A stretch of 47,663 nt of DNA from an uncultured Pseudothermotoga sp. (GCA_937995655.1 CALKJI010000008.1:1-47663), one strand, 5' to 3'. Counted from the first letter of the stretch, positions 34,723 through 47,646 are shown. The notes: a model not told the origin generated them from the letters alone. A program made the numbers and translations.

Positions 34723-34866
34723 ATGGAAACTGTCCAGGAAAGAGTAAATGGACGTCTTCTTACAGAACATAATGAGCAGACAACACAAACAAGGCAAGAA
34801 CTTGCTTGGCTTTTAAGAGAGATACTAACTAATCAACCACGTCTTGTACATCTTGTGATCTTCTGA
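34723..34866 (+). CDS. Possible 47-residue ORF antisense to the phoU 3' end
   Basis: The frame METVQERVNGRLLTEHNEQ... to ...HLVIF reads like a charged helical peptide (RQELAWLLREIL). It lacks a ribosome site at proper spacing, overlaps the last 38 bases of phoU on the other strand and matches nothing I recognise. It is listed only because the otherwise empty stretch 34543-34828 holds nothing else; it may well be chance. Confidence 0.15.
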   Translation: METVQERVNGRLLTEHNEQTTQTRQELAWLLREILTNQPRLVHLVIF

Positions 34867-35533
34867 CAAGTTCTTTCAATTGCTTGCCTGTGCTCATGAA
34901 ATAAAGCTTTTCACAGATGTTTGTTAGATGATCTGCTATTCTTTCTAAGTGTCTTATCAAAAAAGCTTCCTCTAAGTACAGTCTCATCATCTTTGGATTA
35001 GTTTCTTCACAGGCAAGGTCAATAAGATTCTCATGACCAACATTGTGAAGTTGATCAACTTCATCGTCTTTTTTCCAAACTTTAACTGCAAGGCCAAGAT
35101 CTTTGTGTTCCACAGCTTCCACAGTTTCCTTGAACATAGTTAATATTATCTTTATCATCTCATTCAATGTCTTCCAGGAAGTAAAGCTTTCTATTCCCCT
35201 TTGAACGTGTCTACTCAATTGGGCTATATTGACACATTCATCAGCGATCCTTTCAAGATCGATTGACAAACCTATCATTGCGACAACAAATCTAAGGTCG
35301 TCCGCGAGTGGCTGAAACTTTGCAATGACATCGAAAGCCACTGTCTGGATTTCAAGATCAAGTGAATCGAAATAATCGTCCATCAATTCTATATCTCTTA
35401 TAAGTTTTTCATCGCCAGATTGAACAGCCAAGAGGGTTTTTTCAAATAGATGCTCTACACCGCTCAGAAATTCTCTTAGCTTGTCATTCAAAAGATTTAT
35501 CTCTCTTTCGTAGTGAATAGTCCTCTGTGTCAT
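34829..35533 (-). CDS. phoU: Phosphate-system regulatory protein PhoU
   Basis: PhoU links the Pst transporter to the PhoR kinase and restrains phosphate uptake. The 234-residue all-helical protein has two copies of the PhoU three-helix repeat with the metal-binding pattern E/DxxxD (DYFDSLDLEIQ and MIGLSIDLERIADECVNIAQ; then LIRHLERIADHLTNICEKL). ATG 35533 follows GGAGAGGTGTCA; a longer frame starts 21 bases earlier, inside the end of pstB. It is the last gene of the pst operon. PhoU is presumably the link to the soluble kinase encoded at 39550. Confidence 0.93.
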   Translation of the reverse strand: MTQRTIHYEREINLLNDKLREFLSGVEHLFEKTLLAVQSGDEKLIRDIELMDDYFDSLDLEIQTVAFDVIAKFQPLADDLRFVVAMIGLSIDLERIADECVNIAQLSRHVQRGIESFTSWKTLNEMIKIILTMFKETVEAVEHKDLGLAVKVWKKDDEVDQLHNVGHENLIDLACEETNPKMMRLYLEEAFLIRHLERIADHLTNICEKLYFMSTGKQLKELVRRSQDVQDVVD

Positions 35534-35546
35534 TGACACCTCTCCT

Positions 35547-36302
35547 TCATCCAATTTTTCCTGTTAGAAACTGTCGAGTCATTTCGTGTCTTGGTTCCTT
35601 TACAACTTCCGAGGTCAAACCGTATTCTATCAAACGCCCTTCATACAGAAAGATTACCTCATCACTTATCCTTAAAGCCTGCCCCATACTGTGAGTTACT
35701 ATTATAACAGTATACTGCTCGGCTATCGATTCAAGTAACCTTTCTATCTTCGTCGTTGCAATTGGATCGAGTGCGGATGTTGGTTCGTCTAACAGGATTA
35801 CCTCCGGTTCAATAGCAAGAGCTCTGGCTATACAGAGCCTTTGTTGTTGACCGCCTGATAGCTGTACAGCAGGTTTTTTCAGTTTATCTTTCACTTCATC
35901 CCACAAAGCAGCCTTCTTCAACGCTTCCTCGACCTTGTCTCTTAAGAGTTCTTTCTTAGTAATTCCCTGAATTCTAAGGCCATAGGCAACATTGTCAAAC
36001 ACCGACATTGGAAAAGGGTTGGGCCTTTGAAAAACCATCGTCACTTTTTTTCTATATTCCGTCAGGTTCTTGATTGAATATATGTCTTGGCCATGAAACT
36101 TTATAACTCCTTTCATTGAAAAACTAGGTATCATATCATTCAGTCTGTTTAAACATCGGAGCAATGTACTCTTTCCGCAACCAGAAGGGCCCATGATTGC
36201 TGTGATACCTTTTGAAAGTATTCTTGCATTCACATTGTCCAGGACCCTGTGATTACCGTAATGGGCAAATAGGTTTTCTATTTCGAATACTATTTCACTC
36301 AT
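35547..36302 (-). CDS. pstB: Phosphate ABC transporter ATPase PstB
   Basis: A 251-residue ATPase with Walker A (GPSGCGKST), the PstB Q-loop motif VTMVFQRPNPFPMSVFDNVAYG, signature LSGGQQQRLCIARAL, Walker B (VILLDEPTSALDP) and switch His in VIIVTHSMGQA. The FQRPNPFPMS motif is specific to PstB among ABC ATPases. It overlaps pstA by eight bases. Confidence 0.97.
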   Translation of the reverse strand: MSEIVFEIENLFAHYGNHRVLDNVNARILSKGITAIMGPSGCGKSTLLRCLNRLNDMIPSFSMKGVIKFHGQDIYSIKNLTEYRKKVTMVFQRPNPFPMSVFDNVAYGLRIQGITKKELLRDKVEEALKKAALWDEVKDKLKKPAVQLSGGQQQRLCIARALAIEPEVILLDEPTSALDPIATTKIERLLESIAEQYTVIIVTHSMGQALRISDEVIFLYEGRLIEYGLTSEVVKEPRHEMTRQFLTGKIG

Positions 36303-37098
36303 TTCTATGCCTCCTTAAAAACTGAACTGTCGAATAAATTGAGATCATCACGATGACCATGAGTGAAGACATGGCTCTTGCCATCCACTGAGATTTTTCA
36401 CCAAGGTTCATGACTATTGCATAAATGCTCGTAGGCAGTGTCATAACTGGATCTGTGATCTTCTTTGGAAGCTGTGTCGCGTAAAAGACCGCGCCTGTGA
36501 CTAAAATTGGAGCTGTTTCGCTGAAGGCCCTTCCGAGAGTCAACATGAGTGATGTCAAAAGTCCATTCTTGCTAGCTCTCAAGACCATTAGAGTAGCTTG
36601 AAGTTTGTTTGCACCAAGTGCTATGACACCTTCGCGCAACTCCTTTGGAACGGCCCTCAGGAACTCGGCAGCGCTGCTTATGAAAAAGGGTATAGCCATA
36701 GTCGAAAGGGTGAGAGATGCTGATATCAATGACGTACCCAAAGATAGCTTGACACAAAAAAGGCTGAGACCAAATAGACCGTAAACTATCGATGGTATAC
36801 TGTTCATCGTAGCAGCAAGTGATTGCAAAAAAATAGAAAGTCTTCTTGGTGCAAATTCTGTTATGAATATCGTACCCAAAAGGCCTGTTGGTATTGAAAC
36901 TAAGAAAACAACAATCATCAACAGCAGTGAGCCAATGAGCATTGGAAAGATACCGCCTTCACTCATTGCAGATTTTGGATACTGTGTGAAAAAACCTGGT
37001 TTTGTGAAATAATTAACTCCGGAAAAGATTATGATTCCTATTATCAAAGTGAAGGCAACAAAGACTGTGTAACTGATTATTCTAAAGGTCCACCTCAT
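36295..37098 (-). CDS. pstA: Phosphate ABC transporter permease PstA
   Basis: A 267-residue permease with six predicted helices, including an N-terminal FRIISYTVFVAFTLIIGIIIF. The coupling loop VPKELREGVIALGANKLQATLMVLR and VYGLFGLSLF are recognised PstA blocks. It starts four bases after pstC and overlaps pstB. The first cytoplasmic segment is short. Confidence 0.93.
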   Translation of the reverse strand: MRWTFRIISYTVFVAFTLIIGIIIFSGVNYFTKPGFFTQYPKSAMSEGGIFPMLIGSLLLMIVVFLVSIPTGLLGTIFITEFAPRRLSIFLQSLAATMNSIPSIVYGLFGLSLFCVKLSLGTSLISASLTLSTMAIPFFISSAAEFLRAVPKELREGVIALGANKLQATLMVLRASKNGLLTSLMLTLGRAFSETAPILVTGAVFYATQLPKKITDPVMTLPTSIYAIVMNLGEKSQWMARAMSSLMVIVMISIYSTVQFLRRHRNE

Positions 37099-37102
37099 AG
37101 GA

Positions 37103-37969
37103 TCACCCTTTTACCCATTTATCACGCTGTCTTGTGAGATAATTCGTAAGAAGATTCAGCAGCAAAGAACCAACAAGAAGTAAAAATCCTATGAAAAACA
37201 AAGAACTGTAATGAAGGCTACCTATTTCTACTTCGCCCATTTCGCTTCCAAGTGCTGCAGTTAGAGGGCGTATCGGATCGAGTAATGACCTCACAAGAAC
37301 ATTTGCCCCACCGGCGACCATCAAAACGATCATCGTTTCACCGAATATTCTATTAAAAACACTGAGCATGGCATTTATCAAACCAGAAGATGCATATTTG
37401 ACTTCGACTACCATGACAGAAAGATCCTTTGCTCCCAAAGCAACAGCTGCTTCTACAACTTCTCTTGGTACTTTTTCAAGAGATTGGTAAGATAAACTGA
37501 TCATAAAAGGTAAAGTCAAGACAGAAAGCATTATAGAAGCATTTAAAAAATTTTGAGCGGTCCATGCACCAAATTTGAGAAATAGATCACCCAGTACGAC
37601 TACACCAAAAAATCCTAATACTACTGAAGGAATACCGCTAACATACTCAAGAGTTCGTAACATGATCTCCTTCTCTTTCTTTGTGGCAAATCTGTGTAGA
37701 TAAAGTGCAACTATCAGACCGATCGACCAGACCCAGATACTCGTCCACAAAGCTAAGATTATTGAATTGAATAACATAGTCCTTATCCCAAACTCTGCGT
37801 CTACCCAGACAGGATACCAATTCGGTGAGAAAAGACCAAAACCTACCTCTTTTATCGCCCTGATCGATTCAGATGAAATGAAAAAGACTATGGAAAACAA
37901 AGCAGCTGCCACTACCATGGCAGCTATCGATACGATTGAAATGAAGAAAGCGGAACCCAATTTGCCCAT
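37103..37969 (-). CDS. pstC: Phosphate ABC transporter permease PstC
   Basis: A 288-residue permease with six or seven helices. PstC blocks are visible: the EVGFGLFSPNWYPVW segment before the second helix, SGIPSVVLGFFGVVVLG, the coupling loop VPREVVEAAVALGAKDLSVMVVEV and GETMIVLMVAGG. Its ATG overlaps the pstS stop (TAATG), so translation is coupled to the binding protein. Confidence 0.94.
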   Translation of the reverse strand: MGKLGSAFFISIVSIAAMVVAAALFSIVFFISSESIRAIKEVGFGLFSPNWYPVWVDAEFGIRTMLFNSIILALWTSIWVWSIGLIVALYLHRFATKKEKEIMLRTLEYVSGIPSVVLGFFGVVVLGDLFLKFGAWTAQNFLNASIMLSVLTLPFMISLSYQSLEKVPREVVEAAVALGAKDLSVMVVEVKYASSGLINAMLSVFNRIFGETMIVLMVAGGANVLVRSLLDPIRPLTAALGSEMGEVEIGSLHYSSLFFIGFLLLVGSLLLNLLTNYLTRQRDKWVKG

Positions 37970-38805
37970 TACTTACCAGTCCCGTATGCAGGAATGTATC
38001 CAGCCTTCTCAACCAACTTTTGCCCTTCAGGAGAAAGAATGAATCTTATAAAATCAGCGACTATACCTTGTTGTGGCCAAGTGTTGTTAAACCTGGCAAG
38101 ATCTATGAAAACATACAAAGGCCTGCTTATTGGATAGACACCTGCTAAGACATTGGCTATCGTTGGTTCTATTCCGTTGACCTTCAACGCTTTGACTTGG
38201 CTTGTTACATAGCCCATTCCTGTGTAAGCTATGGCATATTGATTCTTTGCGACACTTTCAATCTCTGCTTGAGAAGATTCGAGCATTTGAACTCTTGGGC
38301 TCAACTTTTCACCCTGTAGTACCTTTTCAACCCAGGTTTCAAAGGTTCCAGAAGCAGTGTTTCTTGAGTAAACCACTATAGGTCTGTTTGGAAGTTTAGG
38401 ATCTACTTGATTCCATTGAGTGATCTCTCCTGTGTAGATTTTCTTGAGAGTTTCCATCGTGATGGAATCAATGGCAAGGTTTGGATTGACAATGACTGAA
38501 AGCCCATCGTAAGCTATTACAATGGGGGCAAAGTATTTACCGGCTTTGTGCATTTCTTCAACTTCGGAAGCTTTAAGAAATCTACTAGAGTTGGCAATGT
38601 CCGTTGTGTTATTGAACAATGCCTTTATACCAGTTGTTGAACCTGCACCTTCGAGCGTCACGACCACAGAGGGATTGATTTTCTTAAACTCCTCAACCCA
38701 GAGTTGAGCAATTGGATAAACTGTGTTCGATCCTTTGATGATGAGAGTCTGTGCCGAAAGAATTACCGATGCCACTAAAAGAACCAAACCTAGAAATTTT
38801 CTCAT
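37969..38805 (-). CDS. pstS: Phosphate-binding protein PstS
   Basis: A 278-residue periplasmic-type phosphate-binding protein. It has a signal peptide (MRKFLGLVLLVASVILSAQT) and the PstS phosphate-site segments KGSNTVYPIAQ, EGAGSTTGIKAL, DIANSSRFL and SRNTASGTFETW. ATG 38805 lies after GGAGGTGGAAGG; a longer frame starts 57 bases upstream without a site. It is first in the pstSCAB-phoU operon and divergent from the response regulator at 38919, with about 110 bases between them. Confidence 0.94.
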   Translation of the reverse strand: MRKFLGLVLLVASVILSAQTLIIKGSNTVYPIAQLWVEEFKKINPSVVVTLEGAGSTTGIKALFNNTTDIANSSRFLKASEVEEMHKAGKYFAPIVIAYDGLSVIVNPNLAIDSITMETLKKIYTGEITQWNQVDPKLPNRPIVVYSRNTASGTFETWVEKVLQGEKLSPRVQMLESSQAEIESVAKNQYAIAYTGMGYVTSQVKALKVNGIEPTIANVLAGVYPISRPLYVFIDLARFNNTWPQQGIVADFIRFILSPEGQKLVEKAGYIPAYGTGK

Positions 38806-38918
38806 CCTTCCACCTCCTGTTTTCACCCTATTTTTTGCATAGTTACTTCTAGGCGGCTTCAAAAAAGATTAAAAAGTTTTAACACATTCCTGGCATTATT
38901 TATAAACGGAGGGATGAG

Positions 38919-39572
38919 ATGGCTCATATATTAGTTGTGGAAGACGAAAAAGATGTCAGTGATGTTGTGAGCAGATATCTGAAACTTGATTCACACGAAG
39001 TCAAGACAGCATCTAGCATTCAAGAAATGTACGATGAACTGGAAAAAGGTTGTGTAGATATCATAATACTTGATTTAATGCTTCCAGATGGAGACGCCAT
39101 GGACGAGCTTTCCTCGATAAGGTTTATGTGTCCTAAGACCTTTGTTATAGTTTTAACTGCACTCAGAGAAGATAGAGACAAAATACTTGGCCTTGAGATG
39201 GGCGCAGATGACTATGTGACAAAACCATTTAATCCGAGAGAACTCGTAGCAAGGGTCAGAGCGATAATTAGAAGAACAAGTATGTTTGCAGAAAGGGAAT
39301 TGGTACACAAAGATATGAAGTTACTCGTGAATGAAAGGACGTTGCTGATAGGAGACGAGCCCGTTCAACTGTCTTCGAAAGAGTTTGAAATACTTCTTTT
39401 GCTTTTTGAAAACCCTAAAAAAGTCTTCACGAGAGCTGAGATACTTGATACCGTATGGCGTGACGAAGATAGAAGCGATAGAATCGTTGATGTATACATG
39501 AGTCTGCTAAGGAAAAAATTGGGTAAAGAAAGGTTGGTGACAATCCACGGTGTTGGATACAAGTTGGGATGA
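38919..39572 (+). CDS. phoB: PhoB/OmpR-family response regulator
   Basis: A 217-residue two-domain regulator: receiver domain (acidic pocket E8-D9, phosphoacceptor D52 in ILDLMLPDGD, Lys in VTKPFNPREL) and a winged-helix DNA-binding domain (QLSSKEFEILLLLFENPKKVFTRAEILDTVW; DRIVDVYMSLLRKKLG). It lies back to back with pstS, and its stop overlaps the kinase gene, which strongly suggests that it controls the pst operon. GGAGGG precedes the ATG. The PhoB name is by context; the effector is not shown. Confidence 0.88.
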   Translation: MAHILVVEDEKDVSDVVSRYLKLDSHEVKTASSIQEMYDELEKGCVDIIILDLMLPDGDAMDELSSIRFMCPKTFVIVLTALREDRDKILGLEMGADDYVTKPFNPRELVARVRAIIRRTSMFAERELVHKDMKLLVNERTLLIGDEPVQLSSKEFEILLLLFENPKKVFTRAEILDTVWRDEDRSDRIVDVYMSLLRKKLGKERLVTIHGVGYKLG

Positions 39573-40332
39573 AATCATAGAAAAGTATAGACCATTGCTA
39601 CTCTTGAAACCAGAGCTGATACTTTTTTACCCAGATCAAGGAGAATCTTCAGCCAAAGAACAAATACTAAGTGATTCAAAAACTTTTTTCGTGAATGCAG
39701 TAACTCACGAACTTTTCACACCTATCACTGCAATGCTTGGTCTTTTGGAAGTTGCGAAAGAAGGAGAATATGTTCAGGAGACTCTTCTGAAGATAGAAAG
39801 ACATCTAAAAAGGTTGCAAAGGATTATAGAACAGTTGGTTCTGTTATCAAAATTGGAACAAAGTGAATACATCCCCCATTATCAGAGATTGAGCGTCAAC
39901 AGGTTGTTACGTGATGTCCTATTAGAATATGAAGAAAAAATGAAACAGAAGAATCTCCGTGTCGATATCAGGACCAATAAATTCATCCGAGTCGATCCGG
40001 AAGCCTTCAAAATCGTTATTAGGAATTTAGTATCAAATGCCATCAAATACTCAAAGGATGGTGGGATTGTAGAAATTCTTTCGCAAAAAGACTTTTTGAT
40101 AATTCAAGATCATGGTGTGGGTATACCACAAGAGGATCTCAAAAACATCACAGCTCGTTTCTACAGAGCGGGTAATGCAAGAAGTTATTCGGGGGCGGGT
40201 CTAGGGCTTGCGATTGTTAAACATATTCTTCGGAAACTTTCTATTTCTTGGGCAATTCATTCAATTATGGGAACTGGGACAAAAGTTTTCTTAAAAATAC
40301 ATTCAGATTCAACCTCTGCAACCGGTGAGTGA
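39550..40332 (+). CDS. Soluble histidine kinase of the phosphate system (PhoR-like)
   Basis: A 260-residue sensor kinase with a HisKA domain (phospho-His H53 in NAVTHELFTPITAML) and an HATPase domain with N box (RNLVSNAIKYS), G1 (DHGVGIP) and G2 (GAGLGLAIV). There is no transmembrane helix, PAS or HAMP domain: only about 45 residues precede the HisKA. The start is GTG, or possibly TTG three bases later; either way it overlaps the regulator gene by about 20 bases. Without its own sensor it probably takes its signal from PhoU/PstB at the membrane. That is inference from context. Confidence 0.85.
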   Translation: MLDTSWDEIIEKYRPLLLLKPELILFYPDQGESSAKEQILSDSKTFFVNAVTHELFTPITAMLGLLEVAKEGEYVQETLLKIERHLKRLQRIIEQLVLLSKLEQSEYIPHYQRLSVNRLLRDVLLEYEEKMKQKNLRVDIRTNKFIRVDPEAFKIVIRNLVSNAIKYSKDGGIVEILSQKDFLIIQDHGVGIPQEDLKNITARFYRAGNARSYSGAGLGLAIVKHILRKLSISWAIHSIMGTGTKVFLKIHSDSTSATGE

Positions 40333-40395: not shown

Positions 40396-40425
40396 TTGAA
40401 CTTTGCCTTGGGAAGATGCTATATT
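40396..40425 (+). promoter_or_regulatory. Sugar operon promoter
   Basis: TTGAAC (40396-40401), an 18-nt spacer and TATATT (40420-40425) predict a start near 40432, immediately before the palindrome at 40436-40462. That is the right place for repression by an operon-specific regulator. Confidence 0.55.
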
Positions 40426-40435
40426 AATTACGTGT

Positions 40436-40462
40436 GTTACATAAGTAAGTTACTTATGTAAC
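40436..40462 (+). promoter_or_regulatory. 27-bp perfect palindromic operator of the sugar operon
   Basis: GTTACATAAGTAA (40436-40448) and TTACTTATGTAAC (40450-40462) are perfect complements around a single G. It lies between the predicted transcription start and the GTG of the binding-protein gene, with the GGGAGGG ribosome site just after. The obvious candidate binder is the SorC-type regulator encoded within the operon at 43456. As RNA it could also form a hairpin, but there is no U tract. Confidence 0.75.
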
Positions 40463-40481
40463 CAAAGAGGGAGGGATCTTT

Positions 40482-41720
40482 GTGAAAAAGGTGTTCCTAT
40501 GTATTGTTTTGGTTTCGTTGGTACTACTGAGTTTTGGAAAGACTTTGACGATCTGGATTGGTGGACAGGTTGCAGAGCTTGACGAGACTTGGAATTCAAT
40601 TATTAAGGTGTTTGAGCAGAAGTATGGGATCAAGGTGGAAGTACAACTCTTTGGTTTTGATACTTACTACGACAAACTCGTAACGGCACTCCAGGCCGGT
40701 AAAGGACCAGATCTTGCTTTTGCAGACTTAGGAGGTTGGGTTCCAACCTTTGCAGAAAAAGGTTGGCTTGAGCCAATGGAAGAACAGATCAAAAAGTGGG
40801 AAGGTACTCCGCAGATTTGGCCCAACCTATGGCCAACGGTAACTTACAAAGGTGTCAGATATGGTCTTCCTTGGTACACCGATTGCAGACTCCTACTCTA
40901 CAACAAGACAATGTTTGAGCAAGCTGGTCTTGACCCAAACAATCCACCAAAAACTTGGGACGAACTTGTAGCTGCGGCTCAGAAGATCACCGATACAAAG
41001 AACAGAATCTATGGTTATGGCGTCAGCGGTACAAAAACGGAGCACACTACCCTTGGGTACATGATGTTCTTGTATGCGGCAGGTGGGAAACTTTTGACAG
41101 ATGATTATTCAAGGGCAGCTTTTAACACGCCTGAAGGACTGAAAGCTTTGAAATTCTACACCGATTTAGCCAAGAGATATGGTGTCAGTCCAAATGCTGT
41201 TCAGTATCATGAAGACGATTACAGAAACATGATGGCACAGAATCGTGTAGCAATGTCAATTGGAGGCCCATGGTCATTCCCATTGATCGAGGCAGCAAAT
41301 CCAAATATAGTTGGAAAGTACTCTGTGGCACTTCATCCTTATGATTCACAACCAGCCAGTGTTTTGGGCGGATGGGCGCTCGTCATACCAAAAACAAGTC
41401 CAAACAAAGAAGATGCATGGAAACTTGCTGAATATCTAACTAGCTTTGATGTATGGATGAAATGGGTTGAAGAAAAGGGAGGGCCAATGCCGACAAGAAT
41501 GGATGTTTGTACAAAGTCCAAACTTGCAAATGATCCAAAGTGGCAGGTGATCTTCAAGACATTTCCATACGCGGTTGCAAGGCCACCCATTCCTCAGTAT
41601 CCTCAGATATCTGAACAGATTCAAATCATGGTGCAAAAAGTTTTGTTGAACGAATTGACACCTGAAGAGGCAATTAAAGTTGCAGCAGAAAATGTCAACA
41701 AAATACTCGGAGCAAAGTAA
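40482..41720 (+). CDS. Sugar ABC transporter substrate-binding protein (MalE-like)
   Basis: A 412-residue family-1 extracellular binding protein. It has a signal peptide (MKKVFLCIVLVSLVLLSFG, cleavage likely before KTLT), TLTIWIGGQVAELDETWNSI, the family hallmark GKGPDLAFADLGGW, YGLPWYTDCRLLLYNKTMFEQAGLDP and GGPWSFPLIEAANP. Several Trp and Tyr residues would line the sugar site. No lipobox is seen. The start is GTG, 9 bases after GGGAGGG. It leads the operon and is followed by a stable hairpin (41731-41749). The ligand is unknown. Confidence 0.9.
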   Translation: MKKVFLCIVLVSLVLLSFGKTLTIWIGGQVAELDETWNSIIKVFEQKYGIKVEVQLFGFDTYYDKLVTALQAGKGPDLAFADLGGWVPTFAEKGWLEPMEEQIKKWEGTPQIWPNLWPTVTYKGVRYGLPWYTDCRLLLYNKTMFEQAGLDPNNPPKTWDELVAAAQKITDTKNRIYGYGVSGTKTEHTTLGYMMFLYAAGGKLLTDDYSRAAFNTPEGLKALKFYTDLAKRYGVSPNAVQYHEDDYRNMMAQNRVAMSIGGPWSFPLIEAANPNIVGKYSVALHPYDSQPASVLGGWALVIPKTSPNKEDAWKLAEYLTSFDVWMKWVEEKGGPMPTRMDVCTKSKLANDPKWQVIFKTFPYAVARPPIPQYPQISEQIQIMVQKVLLNELTPEEAIKVAAENVNKILGAK

Positions 41721-41730
41721 ACTATATTTA

Positions 41731-41749
41731 GGGCGGGCTCAGCCCGCCC
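41731..41749 (+). other. Stable hairpin after the binding-protein gene
   Basis: GGGCGGGCT (41731-41739) and AGCCCGCCC (41741-41749) pair perfectly. Because it is followed by ATAATCGG and not by T's, it is more likely an mRNA-stabilising or processing element than a terminator. It would favour the binding protein over the permeases. Confidence 0.7.
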
Positions 41750-41768
41750 ATAATCGGGAGTGAACGAG

Positions 41769-42623
41769 TTGAGGGAGCAAAAGATAGCATTAAGAATGGT
41801 CATGCCATATGTCTTGATTATAATTGCTTTCGTTGTTCTGTTATTGATCTCTAACATTGTTATGAGCTTCTCAACAACCGATGGCAACTTCACTTTTCAA
41901 AATTACAAAGCTATCTTTACAGACAATGTATTCTACAAATCTGTTTTCAACACTTGCATCTGGGTTTTGGGAAGTGTGGCTGGGCAGATATTGCTTGGTC
42001 TTGCTGTAGCCCTTTTGTTGACACAAATTAAGCGTGGACAAGTTTTCTTTAGAAGCATAATATTGATATTACCTTGGGCAACACTTGACATCGTTGCTGG
42101 TGTCATGTGGAAATGGATGTATAACGATATGTACGGTGTGTTGAATGACATTCTTGTCAAAATTGGGCTTGCAAAGGATTACATACCTTGGTTGGCGACT
42201 CCAAAGATGGCGATGATTGCTGTGATAGTTGCAAATATATGGAAGGGTTTTTGTTTATCTGGGATGTTTTTCATTGCTGGAATTCAAACGATACCGCGGG
42301 AGCTTTATGAAGCCGCTGAGATAGACGGTGCGAATGCTTACGGACGTTTTTGGAATGTGACTATACCTCAACTCAAACCTGTGTTGATGACGACTTTAAT
42401 GTTCACAATTATATGGACAATAAATTATTTCCCCCTCATCTATGTGATGACCGGTGGAGGACCAAACTATGGGACTGAAACGATAGTGACATATATTTAT
42501 AGGTTAAGCCTTAGATTCTTGGAATACAATAAGGCAGCCGCACTTTCAAATATTCTTTTTATAATTGTTTTTACCATCGCTTATCTATTTACAAAGAAGA
42601 TGGCAAGGGAAGTGGCAGCATGA
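41769..42623 (+). CDS. Sugar ABC transporter permease (MalF-like)
   Basis: A permease of 284 residues from the TTG at 41769, which is eight bases after GGGAG; a GTG at 41760 overlaps that site. It has six hydrophobic helices and the EAA coupling loop IPRELYEAAEIDGANAYGRFWNVTIPQLKPVL, standard for MalF-type subunits. It lacks the large periplasmic domain of enterobacterial MalF. It overlaps the next permease by four bases. Confidence 0.9.
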   Translation: MREQKIALRMVMPYVLIIIAFVVLLLISNIVMSFSTTDGNFTFQNYKAIFTDNVFYKSVFNTCIWVLGSVAGQILLGLAVALLLTQIKRGQVFFRSIILILPWATLDIVAGVMWKWMYNDMYGVLNDILVKIGLAKDYIPWLATPKMAMIAVIVANIWKGFCLSGMFFIAGIQTIPRELYEAAEIDGANAYGRFWNVTIPQLKPVLMTTLMFTIIWTINYFPLIYVMTGGGPNYGTETIVTYIYRLSLRFLEYNKAAALSNILFIIVFTIAYLFTKKMAREVAA

Positions 42624-43459
42624 TGAAGAGGAGTACAAAGAAGAGAATGATGAGAGTAGTATCATATATTTTATTGACCTTCATCGCCATTGTAATTGTC
42701 TTTCCCTTCCTCTGGCTTGTTTTGACTTCCTTTAAAACTTATCAGCAGATATACAGCTATCCTATAATATACTTGCCAAAGAGCTGGACCATTGAACACT
42801 ATCAGAAAATAGCGAGTCTTGATTTCAAAAGATATTTTCTAAACAGTGTAATAGTTGGTGTTGGGACTATGTTGTTTTCGTTGGTCGTTGGAATTTTTCC
42901 AGCATATGCTTTTTCACGTTATTCCTTTAGATTTAAAAGTGAACTCTTGGTCAGTGTTTTGATCTTTCAAATGTTTCCTATGGTGGTTTTCTTGGTACCT
43001 ATCTTTAAATTCCTGGATTGGATAAAATTACTTGATACGCACATCGGTTTGATCTTGGCTTACTTACCTTTTACGACACCTATAACGATAGTTTTCCTGA
43101 GGAGCTTTTTTCTATCTGTACCAAAATCACTTGAAGAAGCGGCACTGATAGACGGTTGTAACAGAACAAGAGCATTCTTGAGAGTGATCTTTCCCGTCAC
43201 CTTGCCTGGTATAGCCGCGGTGGGAGTTTACGCATTCTTATTCACCTGGAGTGAATTACTCTATTCAATGTCGTTGTTGACAAGCAAAAGGTTACAGACG
43301 ATACCAACCTTTCTTTCTGTCTTTGTGGGGCAGTATCAAACTCGTTGGGGTCCATTGTTTGCAGGATCGGTCTTTGCCACGTTGCCTCCATTGATAGTTT
43401 TCATATTGCTTCAAAGATATTTCATTTCTGGCTTAGTGAGCGGGGCGGTGAAAGAATGA
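42620..43459 (+). CDS. Sugar ABC transporter permease (MalG-like)
   Basis: A 279-residue permease with six helices, N-terminal RVVSYILLTFIAIVIVFPFLWLVLTSFK and the EAA loop VPKSLEEAALIDGCNRTRAFLRVIFPVTLPGI, typical of MalG. Its stop overlaps the regulator's ATG (ATGA). No ATPase gene accompanies the two permeases anywhere in the window, so the transporter probably uses a shared MsmX/MalK-type ATPase encoded elsewhere. Confidence 0.9.
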   Translation: MMKRSTKKRMMRVVSYILLTFIAIVIVFPFLWLVLTSFKTYQQIYSYPIIYLPKSWTIEHYQKIASLDFKRYFLNSVIVGVGTMLFSLVVGIFPAYAFSRYSFRFKSELLVSVLIFQMFPMVVFLVPIFKFLDWIKLLDTHIGLILAYLPFTTPITIVFLRSFFLSVPKSLEEAALIDGCNRTRAFLRVIFPVTLPGIAAVGVYAFLFTWSELLYSMSLLTSKRLQTIPTFLSVFVGQYQTRWGPLFAGSVFATLPPLIVFILLQRYFISGLVSGAVKE

Positions 43460-44424
43460 CAATTAGTGATGACCTGCTTTTTGAAGTAGCATACGATTAC
43501 TACGTTAAGAACATCTTACAAAAAGACATCGCAAAGAAACTTGGTGTCTCAAGAGTTCAGGTGAGCAAATATCTCAAGATGGCTATTGAAAGAAAGATTG
43601 TACGTATTGAAGTAGTGCCACCGAAGATTCCACAAAAACTGGAATCACAGTACAGTTTATTTTTCAACCAGAGGTTCGGTTTGAAAAAACTACTGCTCAC
43701 AACTGGGCATACAAATAATCAATTACTATTGCAGTCCCTTGCAAGAAAAACTTGGGAGTTTTTGTCTGACTTACCTAATGAATCTATGAACATTGGTATA
43801 GGTTGGGGTACAACGATGTTCACATTGGCAACCTATGACTTTAGGGTCGAAAAATTCAAATGGAATGTATTACCACTCTCTGGTGGGACCTTCAAACTAT
43901 CGGACAAGCATTTTGATTCAAATTTTATAGCTCAGAATTTTGCAGAAAGGTCAGGTGCAAAAGCAATTGGCGTCTATTTTCCTTTTCTTATGGACAATCA
44001 TGAACAAAAGAAACAACTTCAAGAGACAGAGGAATTCAAATACTTAAACTCCCTTTGGAGCAATTTGGATATCGTGATATGTAGTGTAGGGTATTCTATT
44101 TCTCGCTCGCCGCTGTTCCGACAAAATGTTTTCGATGGTTCAATTTTGGATAAACTTGAAAAACTCGGTATAGTTGGTGATATTCTCACTCATTATTTTG
44201 ATATCAATGGCAAAATTTACGACCTTGATTTTATGCAGAAAGTCAACAATATAACGATGGAACAGTACATGAAGGCTAAAACAAAGATTGTCGTGGCAGG
44301 CGGGTTTCATAAAATTGAAAGTATAGTTGGTCTTCTGAGAGGTAATCTCACTGACATACTGATAACGGATGAAAACACTGCGAGAAATGTCATTGAATAC
44401 ATTTCTGAGAAGAACTGGAGGTAG
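43456..44424 (+). CDS. SorC-family sugar-responsive transcriptional regulator
   Basis: A 322-residue regulator with an N-terminal helix-turn-helix (YYVKNILQKDIAKKLGVSRVQVSKYLKMAIERKIV) and a C-terminal SorC sugar-phosphate-binding domain: NIGIGWGTTMFTLA, LPLSGGTF, GIVGDILTHYFDINGKIYD and VVAGGFHKIESIVGLLRG followed by ILITDENTARN. Such proteins usually sense a phosphorylated sugar intermediate. ATG 43456 follows GGTGAAAG and overlaps the permease stop. Autoregulation through the palindrome at 40436-40462 is the natural hypothesis. Confidence 0.9.
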   Translation: MTISDDLLFEVAYDYYVKNILQKDIAKKLGVSRVQVSKYLKMAIERKIVRIEVVPPKIPQKLESQYSLFFNQRFGLKKLLLTTGHTNNQLLLQSLARKTWEFLSDLPNESMNIGIGWGTTMFTLATYDFRVEKFKWNVLPLSGGTFKLSDKHFDSNFIAQNFAERSGAKAIGVYFPFLMDNHEQKKQLQETEEFKYLNSLWSNLDIVICSVGYSISRSPLFRQNVFDGSILDKLEKLGIVGDILTHYFDINGKIYDLDFMQKVNNITMEQYMKAKTKIVVAGGFHKIESIVGLLRGNLTDILITDENTARNVIEYISEKNWR

Positions 44425-44432
44425 TGTTAGCC

Positions 44433-45368
44433 TTGAGCATTCAGATACTCAATCTAAATCCTTGTTATGATCACTGGGTGATCCTTTCAAACCCACCGAG
44501 GACTCCGAATGTACTCAGAGGAGATCACGTTGTGAAACTGGTTGACGGCAAAGGATTGAACATTGCGAGAGTTTTAAACATGCTTGGGTTCAAGGACTAT
44601 AACTGCATAAACATCCTTGGAGGTGATGTGGGAAAGATCATACATGCAAAATGTAAAGAGGATAATATAAAGACCCTAGATTTTTGGATCAAAGATGAAA
44701 ACAGGATAAACACAGCGATCGTTTATGAGTATGAAAAAAGAATGCTCATGGTCAATGAACCAGGACCAATCATGCAGAGGGATGAGATAGATAATTTTCT
44801 TGATTTCTTTTCTCTTGCTTTGAAGCGAAATGGCACACTGGTCATCGCTGGAAGTGCACCAAGAGGTTTTGGAACAAAGGACATGGTGAAAATTGCAGAA
44901 CTCGCCAGGAAAAATTCCTGTAGATTGATGATAGACATATCTGGAGAATGGTTGAAAGAATTGGTAAACTTTGGACCTGAAATGGTTAAGGTGAATGCCG
45001 ATGAATTGAGAATAGCATTGAATCTTCAACAGATAGACTTGGCAGATCTTTATCAAATAAAGAAACACTACAACATACAAGTTTTGTGTGTAACTTACGG
45101 CAAGGATGGTTCCATAACATTTGTAAATGACAGAATCATTCGTGTAAAGCCAAAGGTTATTCACTCAGATTATTCTGTGGGTTGTGGAGATTCTTTCTTT
45201 GCAGGTTATCTGTATTACGAAGCTTTGAACAAATCTATTGAAGAACGGCTGGTCTTTGCAACGGCATGTGGTACAGCGAATACTTTAAAATATGGTGCAG
45301 CAATTTTTGATTTACAGGATTTGGAAAGTCAGCTTTCAAATGTAGATTTGGTGGAGGAAAGAATATGA
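44433..45368 (+). CDS. PfkB-family phosphosugar kinase (1-phosphofructokinase / tagatose-6-phosphate kinase type)
   Basis: A kinase of about 311 residues in the FruK/LacC branch of the PfkB family: opening IQILNLNPCYDHWV, GKGLNIARVLNMLG (the GKGxN block), GSAPRGFG and the C-terminal anion-hole/catalytic motif SVGCGDSFFAGY with its catalytic Asp. This branch phosphorylates fructose-1-phosphate or tagatose-6-phosphate to the bisphosphate. The start is unsure: TTG 44433 gives the family-like N-terminus, and GTG 44424 lies very close to the GGAGG. It sits between the regulator and the FGGY kinase, with an aldolase downstream, so it probably performs the second phosphorylation. Confidence 0.88.
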   Translation: MSIQILNLNPCYDHWVILSNPPRTPNVLRGDHVVKLVDGKGLNIARVLNMLGFKDYNCINILGGDVGKIIHAKCKEDNIKTLDFWIKDENRINTAIVYEYEKRMLMVNEPGPIMQRDEIDNFLDFFSLALKRNGTLVIAGSAPRGFGTKDMVKIAELARKNSCRLMIDISGEWLKELVNFGPEMVKVNADELRIALNLQQIDLADLYQIKKHYNIQVLCVTYGKDGSITFVNDRIIRVKPKVIHSDYSVGCGDSFFAGYLYYEALNKSIEERLVFATACGTANTLKYGAAIFDLQDLESQLSNVDLVEERI

Positions 45369-46789
45369 AGGTGTACATTGGTATAGACCTTGGGACTACG
45401 AACACGAAGGTTATGGTCGTAAGCAAGAGTGGCATAGAAAAGGTTGTGAAAATCAAGACACCAAGGAAGACACTCAACAATGTGGAATACTTTGATCTTG
45501 ACAAACTTGATCGCAATCTTGAGAAAATTCTTGCTCAGCTCAAAAAAATTTATCGCATATCTGGCTTGAGCTGTACAAGCTTTGGAGAGTCGGTGGTGCC
45601 GGTTGCAAAAGGTAAAAAATTACACGATCCCATAGTTTGGTATGACACATGTACAAAAAAGACGCAGAAAAAGTATGAAAAAATAGTTGCCCAGTTGGCT
45701 CCCTATGAAATCTCTGGCTCAAGAGATATATATTATTTTTCTCTGTACAAAATACTGTATATGTATGAAAACAATATTGTCAGACCTGAACAAGTAGAAC
45801 AATGGCTACCGGTTTCTTCCTACGTCTTGTACAAGTTGACTAAAAAAGGTGTCTGGGATATGACTCAAGCATGTCGAAGCCATATGGTTGATGTGCACAA
45901 TAGGTCTTGGAACAAGAATTTGATCGATCATTTCAAAATATCACAAGATCAACTGGGAGAACTCAGTTACACGGGCAGCTTTGTTGGTTATTATGGGGAA
46001 ATACCTGTATTTCTAGCGGGTCACGATCATCTGACTGGAACCTTTGGTCTGGTTTCACTGTATGCAAATGAGTTGATATACGATTCTATGGGGACAGCTT
46101 CTTTGATAACAGCCATAACCCATGAAAAGGATAGAAACTTGCACATGAAAGAACCATTCATGAAAAACGGAGGGCTCATAGGTATAGGCTTTAAAGATAA
46201 ACAGTACTACCTGGCCTCTGGTGTTAGGTACCATGGAAAGTTGATTGAGTTAGTTCTTAGGACATTCAACATGACAGTCTCTTCTAAAAAGTTCAGAAAG
46301 ATGAATGAAAAAATAAAACAGATGCCTCAGAAAGTGAATTTTTATATCTACAGCAACGGGGATAACTTGGTCGGTGAGAGTTGTCAAGGCATCAACTTTC
46401 TTGAAATTCCTCCTGATTGTACTCAAGAAGAGATCCTCCAAGCTGTATATCATTATCTTTCTTACACAAGTAGAGTGACCATAGAAAATCTCAACAGGTA
46501 CGTTGGTGATCTTCCCGTTGTTGTCGGCGGGGCTTTGATCAGCAATGATGTCTTTATGAATTATAAAGCCTCTATGTTGTGTAAAGACCTTTATTATCTG
46601 AACACTTCTGAATTGACTGCCCTTGGAGCAGCAATATCAGCAATCAAGGGTTCCCAAGATGAAGAGGTTTTTGAGTCCTTGAAGACAAAAATGGTTTTTC
46701 AAAGGATCGTTCCTAACTATGAGCTGTGTAAAGAAATGAATCGTCTCTACCAAAGAATGAGTGAGGGTTACAATAGGCTCTTGAGATAA
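45365..46789 (+). CDS. FGGY-family carbohydrate kinase
   Basis: A 474-residue kinase in the xylulokinase/glycerol kinase superfamily. It has phosphate motif 1 (GIDLGTTNTKVMVV), the catalytic Asp region AGHDHLTGTFGLV, phosphate motif 2 (DSMGTASLITA) and the adenosine-binding segment PVVVGGALISNDVFMN. The catalytic region reads GHDH, not the GGGD/GAGD seen in xylulokinases, so the substrate is probably not xylulose. Its ATG overlaps the preceding kinase by four bases. It likely performs the first phosphorylation of the imported sugar. The substrate cannot be read from the sequence; a ketohexose such as tagatose is a candidate. Confidence 0.87.
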   Translation: MKVYIGIDLGTTNTKVMVVSKSGIEKVVKIKTPRKTLNNVEYFDLDKLDRNLEKILAQLKKIYRISGLSCTSFGESVVPVAKGKKLHDPIVWYDTCTKKTQKKYEKIVAQLAPYEISGSRDIYYFSLYKILYMYENNIVRPEQVEQWLPVSSYVLYKLTKKGVWDMTQACRSHMVDVHNRSWNKNLIDHFKISQDQLGELSYTGSFVGYYGEIPVFLAGHDHLTGTFGLVSLYANELIYDSMGTASLITAITHEKDRNLHMKEPFMKNGGLIGIGFKDKQYYLASGVRYHGKLIELVLRTFNMTVSSKKFRKMNEKIKQMPQKVNFYIYSNGDNLVGESCQGINFLEIPPDCTQEEILQAVYHYLSYTSRVTIENLNRYVGDLPVVVGGALISNDVFMNYKASMLCKDLYYLNTSELTALGAAISAIKGSQDEEVFESLKTKMVFQRIVPNYELCKEMNRLYQRMSEGYNRLLR

Positions 46790-46800
46790 GGAGGATGAAG

Positions 46801-47646
46801 ATGGCTTTAGTCACACTCAAGGAACTTGTTCAAAGGGCTTACAAATCGGATTACGCTGTGCCAGCTTTCAATATTCACACATATGAAGACGCTTTGGCAA
46901 TTGTCAAGGGTGCCGAGGAAATGAGATCACCTGTTATACTCATGGCTTCACCCAGTGCGATAAAACACTTGGGTATAAAGCTTGCAGCTTGTATTATCAA
47001 TGATCTTGCTATGAATGCTTCTGTGCCTGTAGTCTCACACCTTGATCATGCGACAGATATGGACGTCATCTTTAAGGCAATGAAAGAGGGATTCACTTCC
47101 GTTATGTACGATGGATCGAACCTGAGCTTTGAAGAAAACGTACAAAATACAAGACTCGTTGTGAAGGTAGCGAGGTCCTTTGGAATATCTGTGGAAGCAG
47201 AGATTGGAAGAGTTGGAAAATCTGAAGAAGGTGAACAGCTCGAACAAATTTTGACAGAGCCACAGTCTGCTAAGGGTTTTTTTGAGCAGACACAGGTTGA
47301 CGCATTGGCAATTGCTGTTGGTACTGCCCATGCAATGCAAAGACAGGAAGCACAGATAAACTTTGAACGTGTCAGACAGATACAAGAAGTCGTGGACGTA
47401 CCACTTGTTTTACATGGTTCAAGCGGTGTACCCGATGAAGATCTTACAAAGATTAGTAAAATGAGATTTGGAAAGATAAACATAGGTACAATTCTAAAAA
47501 CCGTTTATGTAAAAAAGATCAAAGAGATTGTGTTGAACAATCCAGGGTTGAAAGATCAGATCGTTTTGCTGAAGGATGCTTCTATGGCGGTAACTGAAAT
47601 AGTCAAAGGCAAGATAAAACTGCTTAACAGCTCAGGAAGAGTTTAA
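46801..47646 (+). CDS. Class II fructose/tagatose-bisphosphate aldolase
   Basis: A 281-residue zinc aldolase that would split a ketohexose bisphosphate into dihydroxyacetone phosphate and glyceraldehyde-3-phosphate. It shows VPAFNIHTYEDALAIV, the catalytic Asp and zinc His in VVSHLDHATDMD, Glu in VEAEIGRVG, zinc His in VGTAHAM and LHGSSGVP. The length fits the GatY/KbaY/FbaA group. ATG 46801 follows AAGGAGG by six bases; an ATG two codons earlier overlaps that site. It is the last gene before the window ends, and the operon may continue. Fructose or tagatose specificity is not decided by these motifs. Confidence 0.9.
   Translation: MALVTLKELVQRAYKSDYAVPAFNIHTYEDALAIVKGAEEMRSPVILMASPSAIKHLGIKLAACIINDLAMNASVPVVSHLDHATDMDVIFKAMKEGFTSVMYDGSNLSFEENVQNTRLVVKVARSFGISVEAEIGRVGKSEEGEQLEQILTEPQSAKGFFEQTQVDALAIAVGTAHAMQRQEAQINFERVRQIQEVVDVPLVLHGSSGVPDEDLTKISKMRFGKINIGTILKTVYVKKIKEIVLNNPGLKDQIVLLKDASMAVTEIVKGKIKLLNSSGRV

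What the first reader, a model, noticed from the sequence alone, without database searches (positions are those of the whole stretch)
40396..47646. Sugar operon pairing an FGGY kinase, a PfkB kinase and a class II aldolase behind one ABC importer
Seen: binding protein, two permeases, SorC regulator, PfkB-type kinase, FGGY kinase and class II aldolase in one direction with overlaps. Known: FruK/LacC-type kinases make ketohexose bisphosphates, class II aldolases cleave them, and FGGY kinases phosphorylate free sugars. Inferred: the imported sugar is phosphorylated by the FGGY enzyme, again by the PfkB enzyme, then cleaved. This would be a PTS-free, ATP-driven counterpart of the tagatose or fructose-1-phosphate routes. 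No isomerase or dehydrogenase is present, so the substrate may itself be a ketohexose (tagatose, sorbose, psicose). I do not know of a described pathway with exactly this set.
Basis: partly seen in the sequence, partly recalled or inferred. Interest (0 to 1): 0.65.

Follow-up and report, generated by a model that had tools for sequence, protein, structure and literature searches.

The report
ATP-driven D-tagatose import and breakdown operon
Seven genes of a heat-loving bacterium, controlled by one DNA switch, very probably import the rare sugar tagatose, phosphorylate it twice with ATP and cut it in half to feed glycolysis, doing without the sugar-transport system (PTS) that the known tagatose-eating bacteria use.

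Summary
Seven same-strand genes (binding protein, two permeases, SorC regulator, PfkB kinase, FGGY kinase, class II ketose-bisphosphate aldolase) fill 40482-47646, mostly with 1-4 bp overlaps. The substrate can be named: the binding protein is 89.8% identical to PDB 5CI5 (Tlet_1705), solved with alpha-D-tagatose, and in genome G002 the binding protein of the same operon is identical to 5CI5 over 394/394 residues. All seven genes in this order occur in 12 Thermotogota genomes from three families (one gene is cut by a contig end in two of them). A 27-bp palindrome next to the promoter (40436-40462) precedes the operon in all 10 copies with held upstream DNA; in 11 genomes searched it was found only there. 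PfkB and FGGY are adjacent wherever the FGGY orthologue occurs, even without the aldolase. Seven of eight genomes tested lack PTS enzyme I. Best reading: tagatose, tagatose-phosphate (FGGY), tagatose-1,6-bisphosphate (PfkB), then DHAP + glyceraldehyde-3-P (aldolase). Enzyme specificities and the order of phosphorylation (C1 or C6 first) are inferred. The FGGY is far below every curated FGGY cut-off: an unassigned subfamily. Every step type is known; the combination was not found in the papers held. New variant of a known kind.

The parts
40396..40425 (+). promoter-like site TTGAAC-18-TATATT in front of the operon
   Evidence: consensus scan; such matches are frequent by chance, but this one lies directly before the conserved operator
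40436..40462 (.). 27-bp palindromic operator GTTACATAAGTAAGTTACTTATGTAAC, probable SorC-regulator site just downstream of the -10-like hexamer
   Evidence: perfect 13-bp arms; present before all 10 operon copies with held upstream DNA; one site per genome where found, none in genomes without the full operon, reversed-pattern control 0
40482..41720 (+). D-tagatose-binding protein of a CUT1-type ABC importer
   Evidence: Pfam SBP_bac_1; 354/394 identical to PDB 5CI5, Tlet_1705 with alpha-D-tagatose
41760..42623 (+). ABC importer permease 1 (MalF-like)
   Evidence: BPD_transp_1
42620..43459 (+). ABC importer permease 2 (MalG-like)
   Evidence: BPD_transp_1; 4-bp overlap with permease 1
43456..44424 (+). 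SorC-family transcription regulator (322 aa)
   Evidence: Sugar-bind PF04198; start set by ATGA overlap and by relatives of 322-323 aa
44424..45368 (+). PfkB-family kinase of the FruK/LacC/Pfk-2 group; inferred tagatose-phosphate kinase
   Evidence: PfkB PF00294; TIGR03168 188.9 bits against cut-off 216.4; closest solved relative by sequence is tagatose-6-phosphate kinase 2awd
45365..46789 (+). FGGY kinase, inferred D-tagatose kinase (first phosphorylation)
   Evidence: FGGY_N/FGGY_C; no curated NCBIfam cut-off met; predicted FGGY fold, pLDDT 90.7
46795..47646 (+). class II ketose-bisphosphate aldolase, inferred tagatose-1,6-bisphosphate aldolase
   Evidence: PF01116; meets TIGR00167 ketose-bisphosphate aldolase, 251 against 215.6; best solved match tagatose-bisphosphate aldolase 1gvf

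Best explanation
This is a complete, self-regulated D-tagatose catabolic operon. The binding protein captures D-tagatose and the two permeases import it, using an ATPase encoded elsewhere in the genome. The FGGY kinase phosphorylates the free sugar; the PfkB kinase phosphorylates the other end, giving D-tagatose 1,6-bisphosphate; the class II aldolase splits that into dihydroxyacetone phosphate and glyceraldehyde 3-phosphate. The SorC regulator represses the operon at the palindrome by the transcription start until a tagatose phosphate releases it. Shown: gene content, conservation, the conserved palindrome, and (by a published crystal structure) binding of tagatose by the orthologous protein of the same operon. 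Inferred: the three enzyme activities, the order of phosphorylation, the shared ATPase, SorC binding at the palindrome and the inducer.
For: Binding protein 89.8% identical to 5CI5; G002's operon carries the 5CI5 sequence itself, 394/394. Ligand alpha-D-tagatose stated in PMC4890002, PMC7676653, PMC8938411, PMC13084667. Seven-gene order in 12 genomes of three families. PfkB directly upstream of FGGY at every orthologous locus with sequence there, including copies without transporter or aldolase. Palindrome confined to this operon. Aldolase keeps the metal-binding and catalytic motifs (HLDH, VEAE, VGTxH, LVLHGSSG) in all copies that cover them, apart from one conservative change outside the histidines. 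FGGY keeps the nucleotide loop DxGTT and the GHDH-type aspartate in all 16. No PTS enzyme I in own genome. The importer lacks its own ATPase; three MalK-like ATPases lie elsewhere.
Against: No enzyme of this family is known to me to have been assayed. The 5CI5 ligand comes from a structural-genomics entry whose affinity and physiological relevance are unpublished in what I could read. FGGY and PfkB score below all specificity cut-offs. The FGGY evolves much faster (36-41% identity to the distant copies) than the binding protein (68-76%), so its substrate could in principle differ between families.
Confidence: 0.8

Rival explanations
1. The same double-kinase and aldolase route, but the physiological sugar is another ketohexose (L-sorbose, D-psicose, D-fructose) or an oligosaccharide or glycoside yielding one; tagatose in 5CI5 is a surrogate ligand.
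For: CUT1 binding proteins often bind oligosaccharides, and the nearest solved relatives after 5CI5 are maltose and trehalose binders. Class II aldolases of this group can be lax in stereochemistry (general knowledge).
Against: The crystal structure holds tagatose. The aldolase's best solved match is a tagatose-bisphosphate aldolase and the PfkB's best solved match is a tagatose-6-phosphate kinase, though both margins are modest. No glycosidase in the operon.
Confidence: 0.12
2. The two kinases serve different substrates: FGGY takes one imported sugar into a pentose or deoxyhexose route, and the PfkB plus aldolase act on fructose- or tagatose-phosphate made elsewhere.
For: The FGGY resembles xylulokinase, fuculokinase and glycerol kinase profiles about equally.
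Against: FGGY and PfkB are adjacent in every orthologous locus, even where transporter, regulator or aldolase are missing; no isomerase, epimerase or second aldolase in the seven-gene copies.
Confidence: 0.06
3. Tagatose phosphate is not cleaved as the bisphosphate but joins fructose-6-phosphate through a 4-epimerase, with the PfkB acting as an ordinary 6-phosphofructokinase.
For: An epimerase-type tagatose route has been described in Agrobacterium (from memory; paper not held).
Against: No epimerase in the operon; no GatZ/KbaZ-like protein (the superfamily of such epimerases, from memory) in the genome; an aldolase is part of all 12 operons although the genome has a second class II aldolase.
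Confidence: 0.02

Closest known systems
PTS-dependent D-tagatose pathway of Klebsiella and Bacillus licheniformis (cited in PMC10101011)
   Same: Phosphorylated tagatose, phosphosugar kinase making tagatose 1,6-bisphosphate, GatY-type class II aldolase, same end products
   Different: There the PTS imports and makes the first phosphate; here an ABC importer and an FGGY kinase replace it, with a SorC regulator
Tagatose-6-phosphate (LacABCD) pathway for lactose/galactose
   Same: PfkB-family tagatose-6-phosphate kinase (LacC) followed by a tagatose-bisphosphate aldolase
   Different: Starts from galactose-6-phosphate through the LacAB isomerase (general knowledge); no FGGY kinase or tagatose importer
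E. coli GatY/GatZ and KbaY/KbaZ tagatose-bisphosphate aldolases
   Same: Same aldolase family; window aldolase 39.5% identical to KbaY and 34.5% to GatY
   Different: No GatZ/KbaZ partner in this genome
ABC-imported D-altritol/galactitol routes of Agrobacterium through tagatose (Wichelecki et al. 2015, cited in PMC12193009; details from memory)
   Same: ABC import and an ATP-dependent tagatose kinase
   Different: Ends in an epimerase to fructose-6-phosphate rather than a second kinase plus aldolase (from memory; paper not held)
FGGY kinases xylulokinase, L-fuculokinase, glycerol kinase
   Same: Fold and catalytic motifs
   Different: 18-22% identical to E. coli XylB, GlpK and FucK; far below all cut-offs

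Membership tests
D-tagatose-binding ABC binding protein (5CI5/Tlet_1705) | Orthology to the tagatose-bound protein | tested here: met
   89.8% identity over 394 residues; one such protein per genome at E<=1e-60, in this operon; G002 copy identical to 5CI5
Tagatose-bisphosphate pathway | Kinase making tagatose 1,6-bisphosphate | tested here: inconclusive
   PfkB of the FruK/LacC/Pfk-2 group, but below TIGR03168, LacC and FruK cut-offs
Tagatose-bisphosphate pathway | Class II ketose-bisphosphate aldolase with intact metal-binding and catalytic motifs | tested here: met
   TIGR00167 met; motifs conserved; stereospecificity not testable here
PTS-type tagatose pathway | PTS import and phosphorylation | tested here: not met
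   ABC importer genes present; no PTS enzyme I in own genome or 6 of 7 others tested
GatYZ/KbaYZ aldolase | GatZ/KbaZ partner subunit | tested here: not met
   PF08013 absent from the genome, E. coli control positive
FGGY kinase superfamily | FGGY domains, fold, catalytic Asp | tested here: met
   FGGY_N above cut-off, FGGY_C just below; Foldseek TM 0.72-0.84 to glycerol and xylulose kinases; H220-D221-H222 invariant in 16
Characterised FGGY specificity classes (XylB, FucK, RhaB, GlpK, GntK, LsrK, AraB) | Curated equivalog cut-off | tested here: not met
   Best 90.5 bits against 380 for the window protein
D-tagatose kinase activity (EC 2.7.1.101, from memory) | ATP-dependent phosphorylation of D-tagatose | not testable with these tools
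   needs an enzyme assay
SorC-regulated operon | SorC-family regulator encoded in the operon and a conserved palindrome at the promoter | tested here: met
   PF04198; palindrome in 10 of 10 copies with held upstream DNA; binding by the regulator itself not tested

The most novel reading that the evidence does not exclude
The FGGY protein founds a new specificity class of FGGY kinases, a true D-tagatose kinase. With its constant PfkB partner it forms a two-ATP, PTS-free tagatose-bisphosphate pathway, found here in three families of Thermotogota, that has not been described biochemically.
Probability: 0.6. Interest if true: 0.5.

Novelty: new variant of a known kind. Interest (0 to 1): 0.42.

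Why it matters
It gives an orphan crystal structure (5CI5) a pathway, predicts the function of an unassigned FGGY clade and of a SorC regulator with its operator, and supplies candidate enzymes from thermophiles for tagatose phosphorylation and cleavage, of use for rare-sugar work. It also shows how a bacterium without the PTS can use a sugar whose described operons rely on it.

Tried and rejected
Specificity from family scores: FGGY and PfkB meet no equivalog cut-off, so C1-first or C6-first phosphorylation cannot be decided. PfkB profile scores favour 1-phosphofructokinase (179.7) over LacC (98), whereas the best solved structure is LacC (110.6) over FruK (86): contradictory, left open. Foldseek on the FGGY model only confirms the superfamily. 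The degenerate-peptide scan of genome contigs found only two close Thermotogota loci, so occurrence outside the phylum remains untested. Weak FGGY hits in other Thermotogota (24-28% identity) do not carry the other operon genes within the short flanks held. The upstream two-component pair (38919-40332) was considered as part of the operon and rejected: it lies next to the phosphate-transport genes, and the palindrome and promoter-like site lie between it and the operon. PF00596 class II aldolases (fuculose/ribulose type) were checked first: the one in this genome is elsewhere, and the operon's aldolase is PF01116. The key papers on the B. licheniformis and Agrobacterium tagatose routes were not held.

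Full report
Observation. The window is a whole contig (G000:C8, 47,663 bases) of a 2.1-Mb genome. ORF listing and Pfam confirm seven genes in one direction: binding protein 40482-41720, permeases 41760-42623 and 42620-43459, SorC regulator 43456-44424, PfkB kinase 44424-45368, FGGY kinase 45365-46789, class II ketose-bisphosphate aldolase 46795-47646. Stop/start overlaps of 1-4 bp join five of the genes. The contig stops 17 nt after the aldolase, but in the relatives nothing further appears to belong to the operon: what follows is lysine 5,6-aminomutase in G002 or a convergent GlcNAc-type cluster in G001, with the same arrangement in G003.

Substrate. The binding protein matches PDB 5CI5 with 846 bits; counting the alignment gives 354 of 394 identical residues. 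Papers that used 5CI5 state that it is Tlet_1705 of Thermotoga (Pseudothermotoga) lettingae with alpha-D-tagatose bound (PMC4890002, PMC7676653, PMC8938411, PMC13084667). In genome G002 the binding protein of this same operon is identical to 5CI5 at 394 of 394 positions. Thus the crystallised tagatose-binding protein is a gene of this operon, directly upstream of the permeases, SorC, PfkB, FGGY and aldolase. More distant operon copies keep 70-74% identity to 5CI5. No primary publication for 5CI5 was found and no affinity is known to me.

Conservation. A profile of the FGGY protein finds relatives above 200 bits in 17 of 103 Thermotogota genomes. All seven genes in the same order are present in G000-G003, G058, G063, G064, G065, G067, G070, G073 and G087, 12 genomes in three families; in G058 the aldolase and in G064 the binding protein are cut by the contig end. 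PfkB lies directly before FGGY at every locus that holds sequence there, including G007 (PfkB-FGGY-aldolase, with only about 35 residues left of SorC and no such binding protein in the genome at E<=1e-60), the second copy in G073 and the copy in G074 without aldolase, and the distant G052 copy. A pair that stays together while the rest is gained or lost is what two consecutive steps would give (inference).

Regulation. Between a promoter-like TTGAAC-18-TATATT and the binding-protein gene lies GTTACATAAGTAAGTTACTTATGTAAC (40436-40462), a palindrome with perfect 13-bp arms. The same element, with 0-4 changes, precedes all ten operons whose upstream DNA is held, across families. A search of 11 genomes with up to three mismatches finds it once per genome, always there, in seven genomes that carry the full operon; it is absent from G007 and G052, which lack the full operon, from G074, where no full operon was found, and from the incomplete G073 assembly, whose operon contig begins inside the binding-protein gene. 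The reversed-pattern control gives none. This is most simply the operator of the SorC regulator; that step is inferred.

Enzymes. The aldolase meets the ketose-bisphosphate aldolase model TIGR00167 and has the tagatose-bisphosphate aldolase 1gvf (AgaY/KbaY) as best solved relative; the metal-binding and catalytic motifs are conserved. The partner subunit GatZ/KbaZ is absent from the genome, and the genome has a second class II aldolase on C6, presumably the glycolytic one. The PfkB protein belongs to the FruK/LacC/Pfk-2 group but reaches no equivalog cut-off, and its best solved relative is a tagatose-6-phosphate kinase. At position 41 it has Asp where E. coli FruK has Ala39; FruK A39S was selected during evolution on tagatose and raised activity on tagatose-6-phosphate (PMC10101011). 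Asp41 is shared by nearly all copies and is a candidate specificity residue. The FGGY protein is predicted to fold as a normal FGGY kinase (pLDDT 90.7) with the catalytic and nucleotide-loop residues invariant in 16 homologues, but the window protein reaches at most 90 bits against a cut-off of 380. It is 18-22% identical to E. coli XylB, GlpK and FucK. A survey of FGGY specificities does not mention tagatose (PMC3245297).

Mechanism. ABC import by a transporter without its own ATPase gene (three MalK-like ATPases elsewhere) delivers free tagatose, so the first phosphate must come from a kinase. FGGY kinases act on free sugars and the FruK/LacC/Pfk-2 group acts on sugar phosphates (family knowledge), which fixes the order of the enzymes but not the carbon phosphorylated first. 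The bisphosphate is cleaved to DHAP and glyceraldehyde 3-phosphate. Own genome and six of seven others tested lack PTS enzyme I, so the PTS form of the pathway is not open to them.

Verdict. I file it as a new variant of tagatose-bisphosphate catabolism, not as a new kind of system.

Noticed in passing
L037:7700-11034 (G007): Apparent decay of the operon by deletion: transporter, palindrome and most of SorC are gone, but about 35 C-terminal SorC residues and intact PfkB, FGGY and aldolase genes remain.
   Followed up: partly
L062:8895-11302 (G073) and L069:1888-4298 (G074): PfkB-FGGY pairs without aldolase, transporter or palindrome nearby. In L062 no PfkB ORF of 180 aa or more is listed although homology spans about 308 residues, so that copy seems interrupted.
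   Followed up: no
L071:7603-9860 (G052): Distant PfkB-FGGY pair (31-34% identity) next to a different ABC importer and divergent from an aldolase/FGGY/isomerase-like cluster; possibly a related route for another sugar.
   Followed up: no
window 34829-40332: Phosphate-transport genes with a PhoU-like protein on the - strand, divergent from a response regulator/histidine kinase pair that ends just before the tagatose operon; the pair is also upstream of the operon in G001-G003.
   Followed up: partly
G000:C7:9956-10609: An FGGY gene whose N-terminal domain matches the Pfam model in two separated pieces, so it may be divergent.
   Followed up: no
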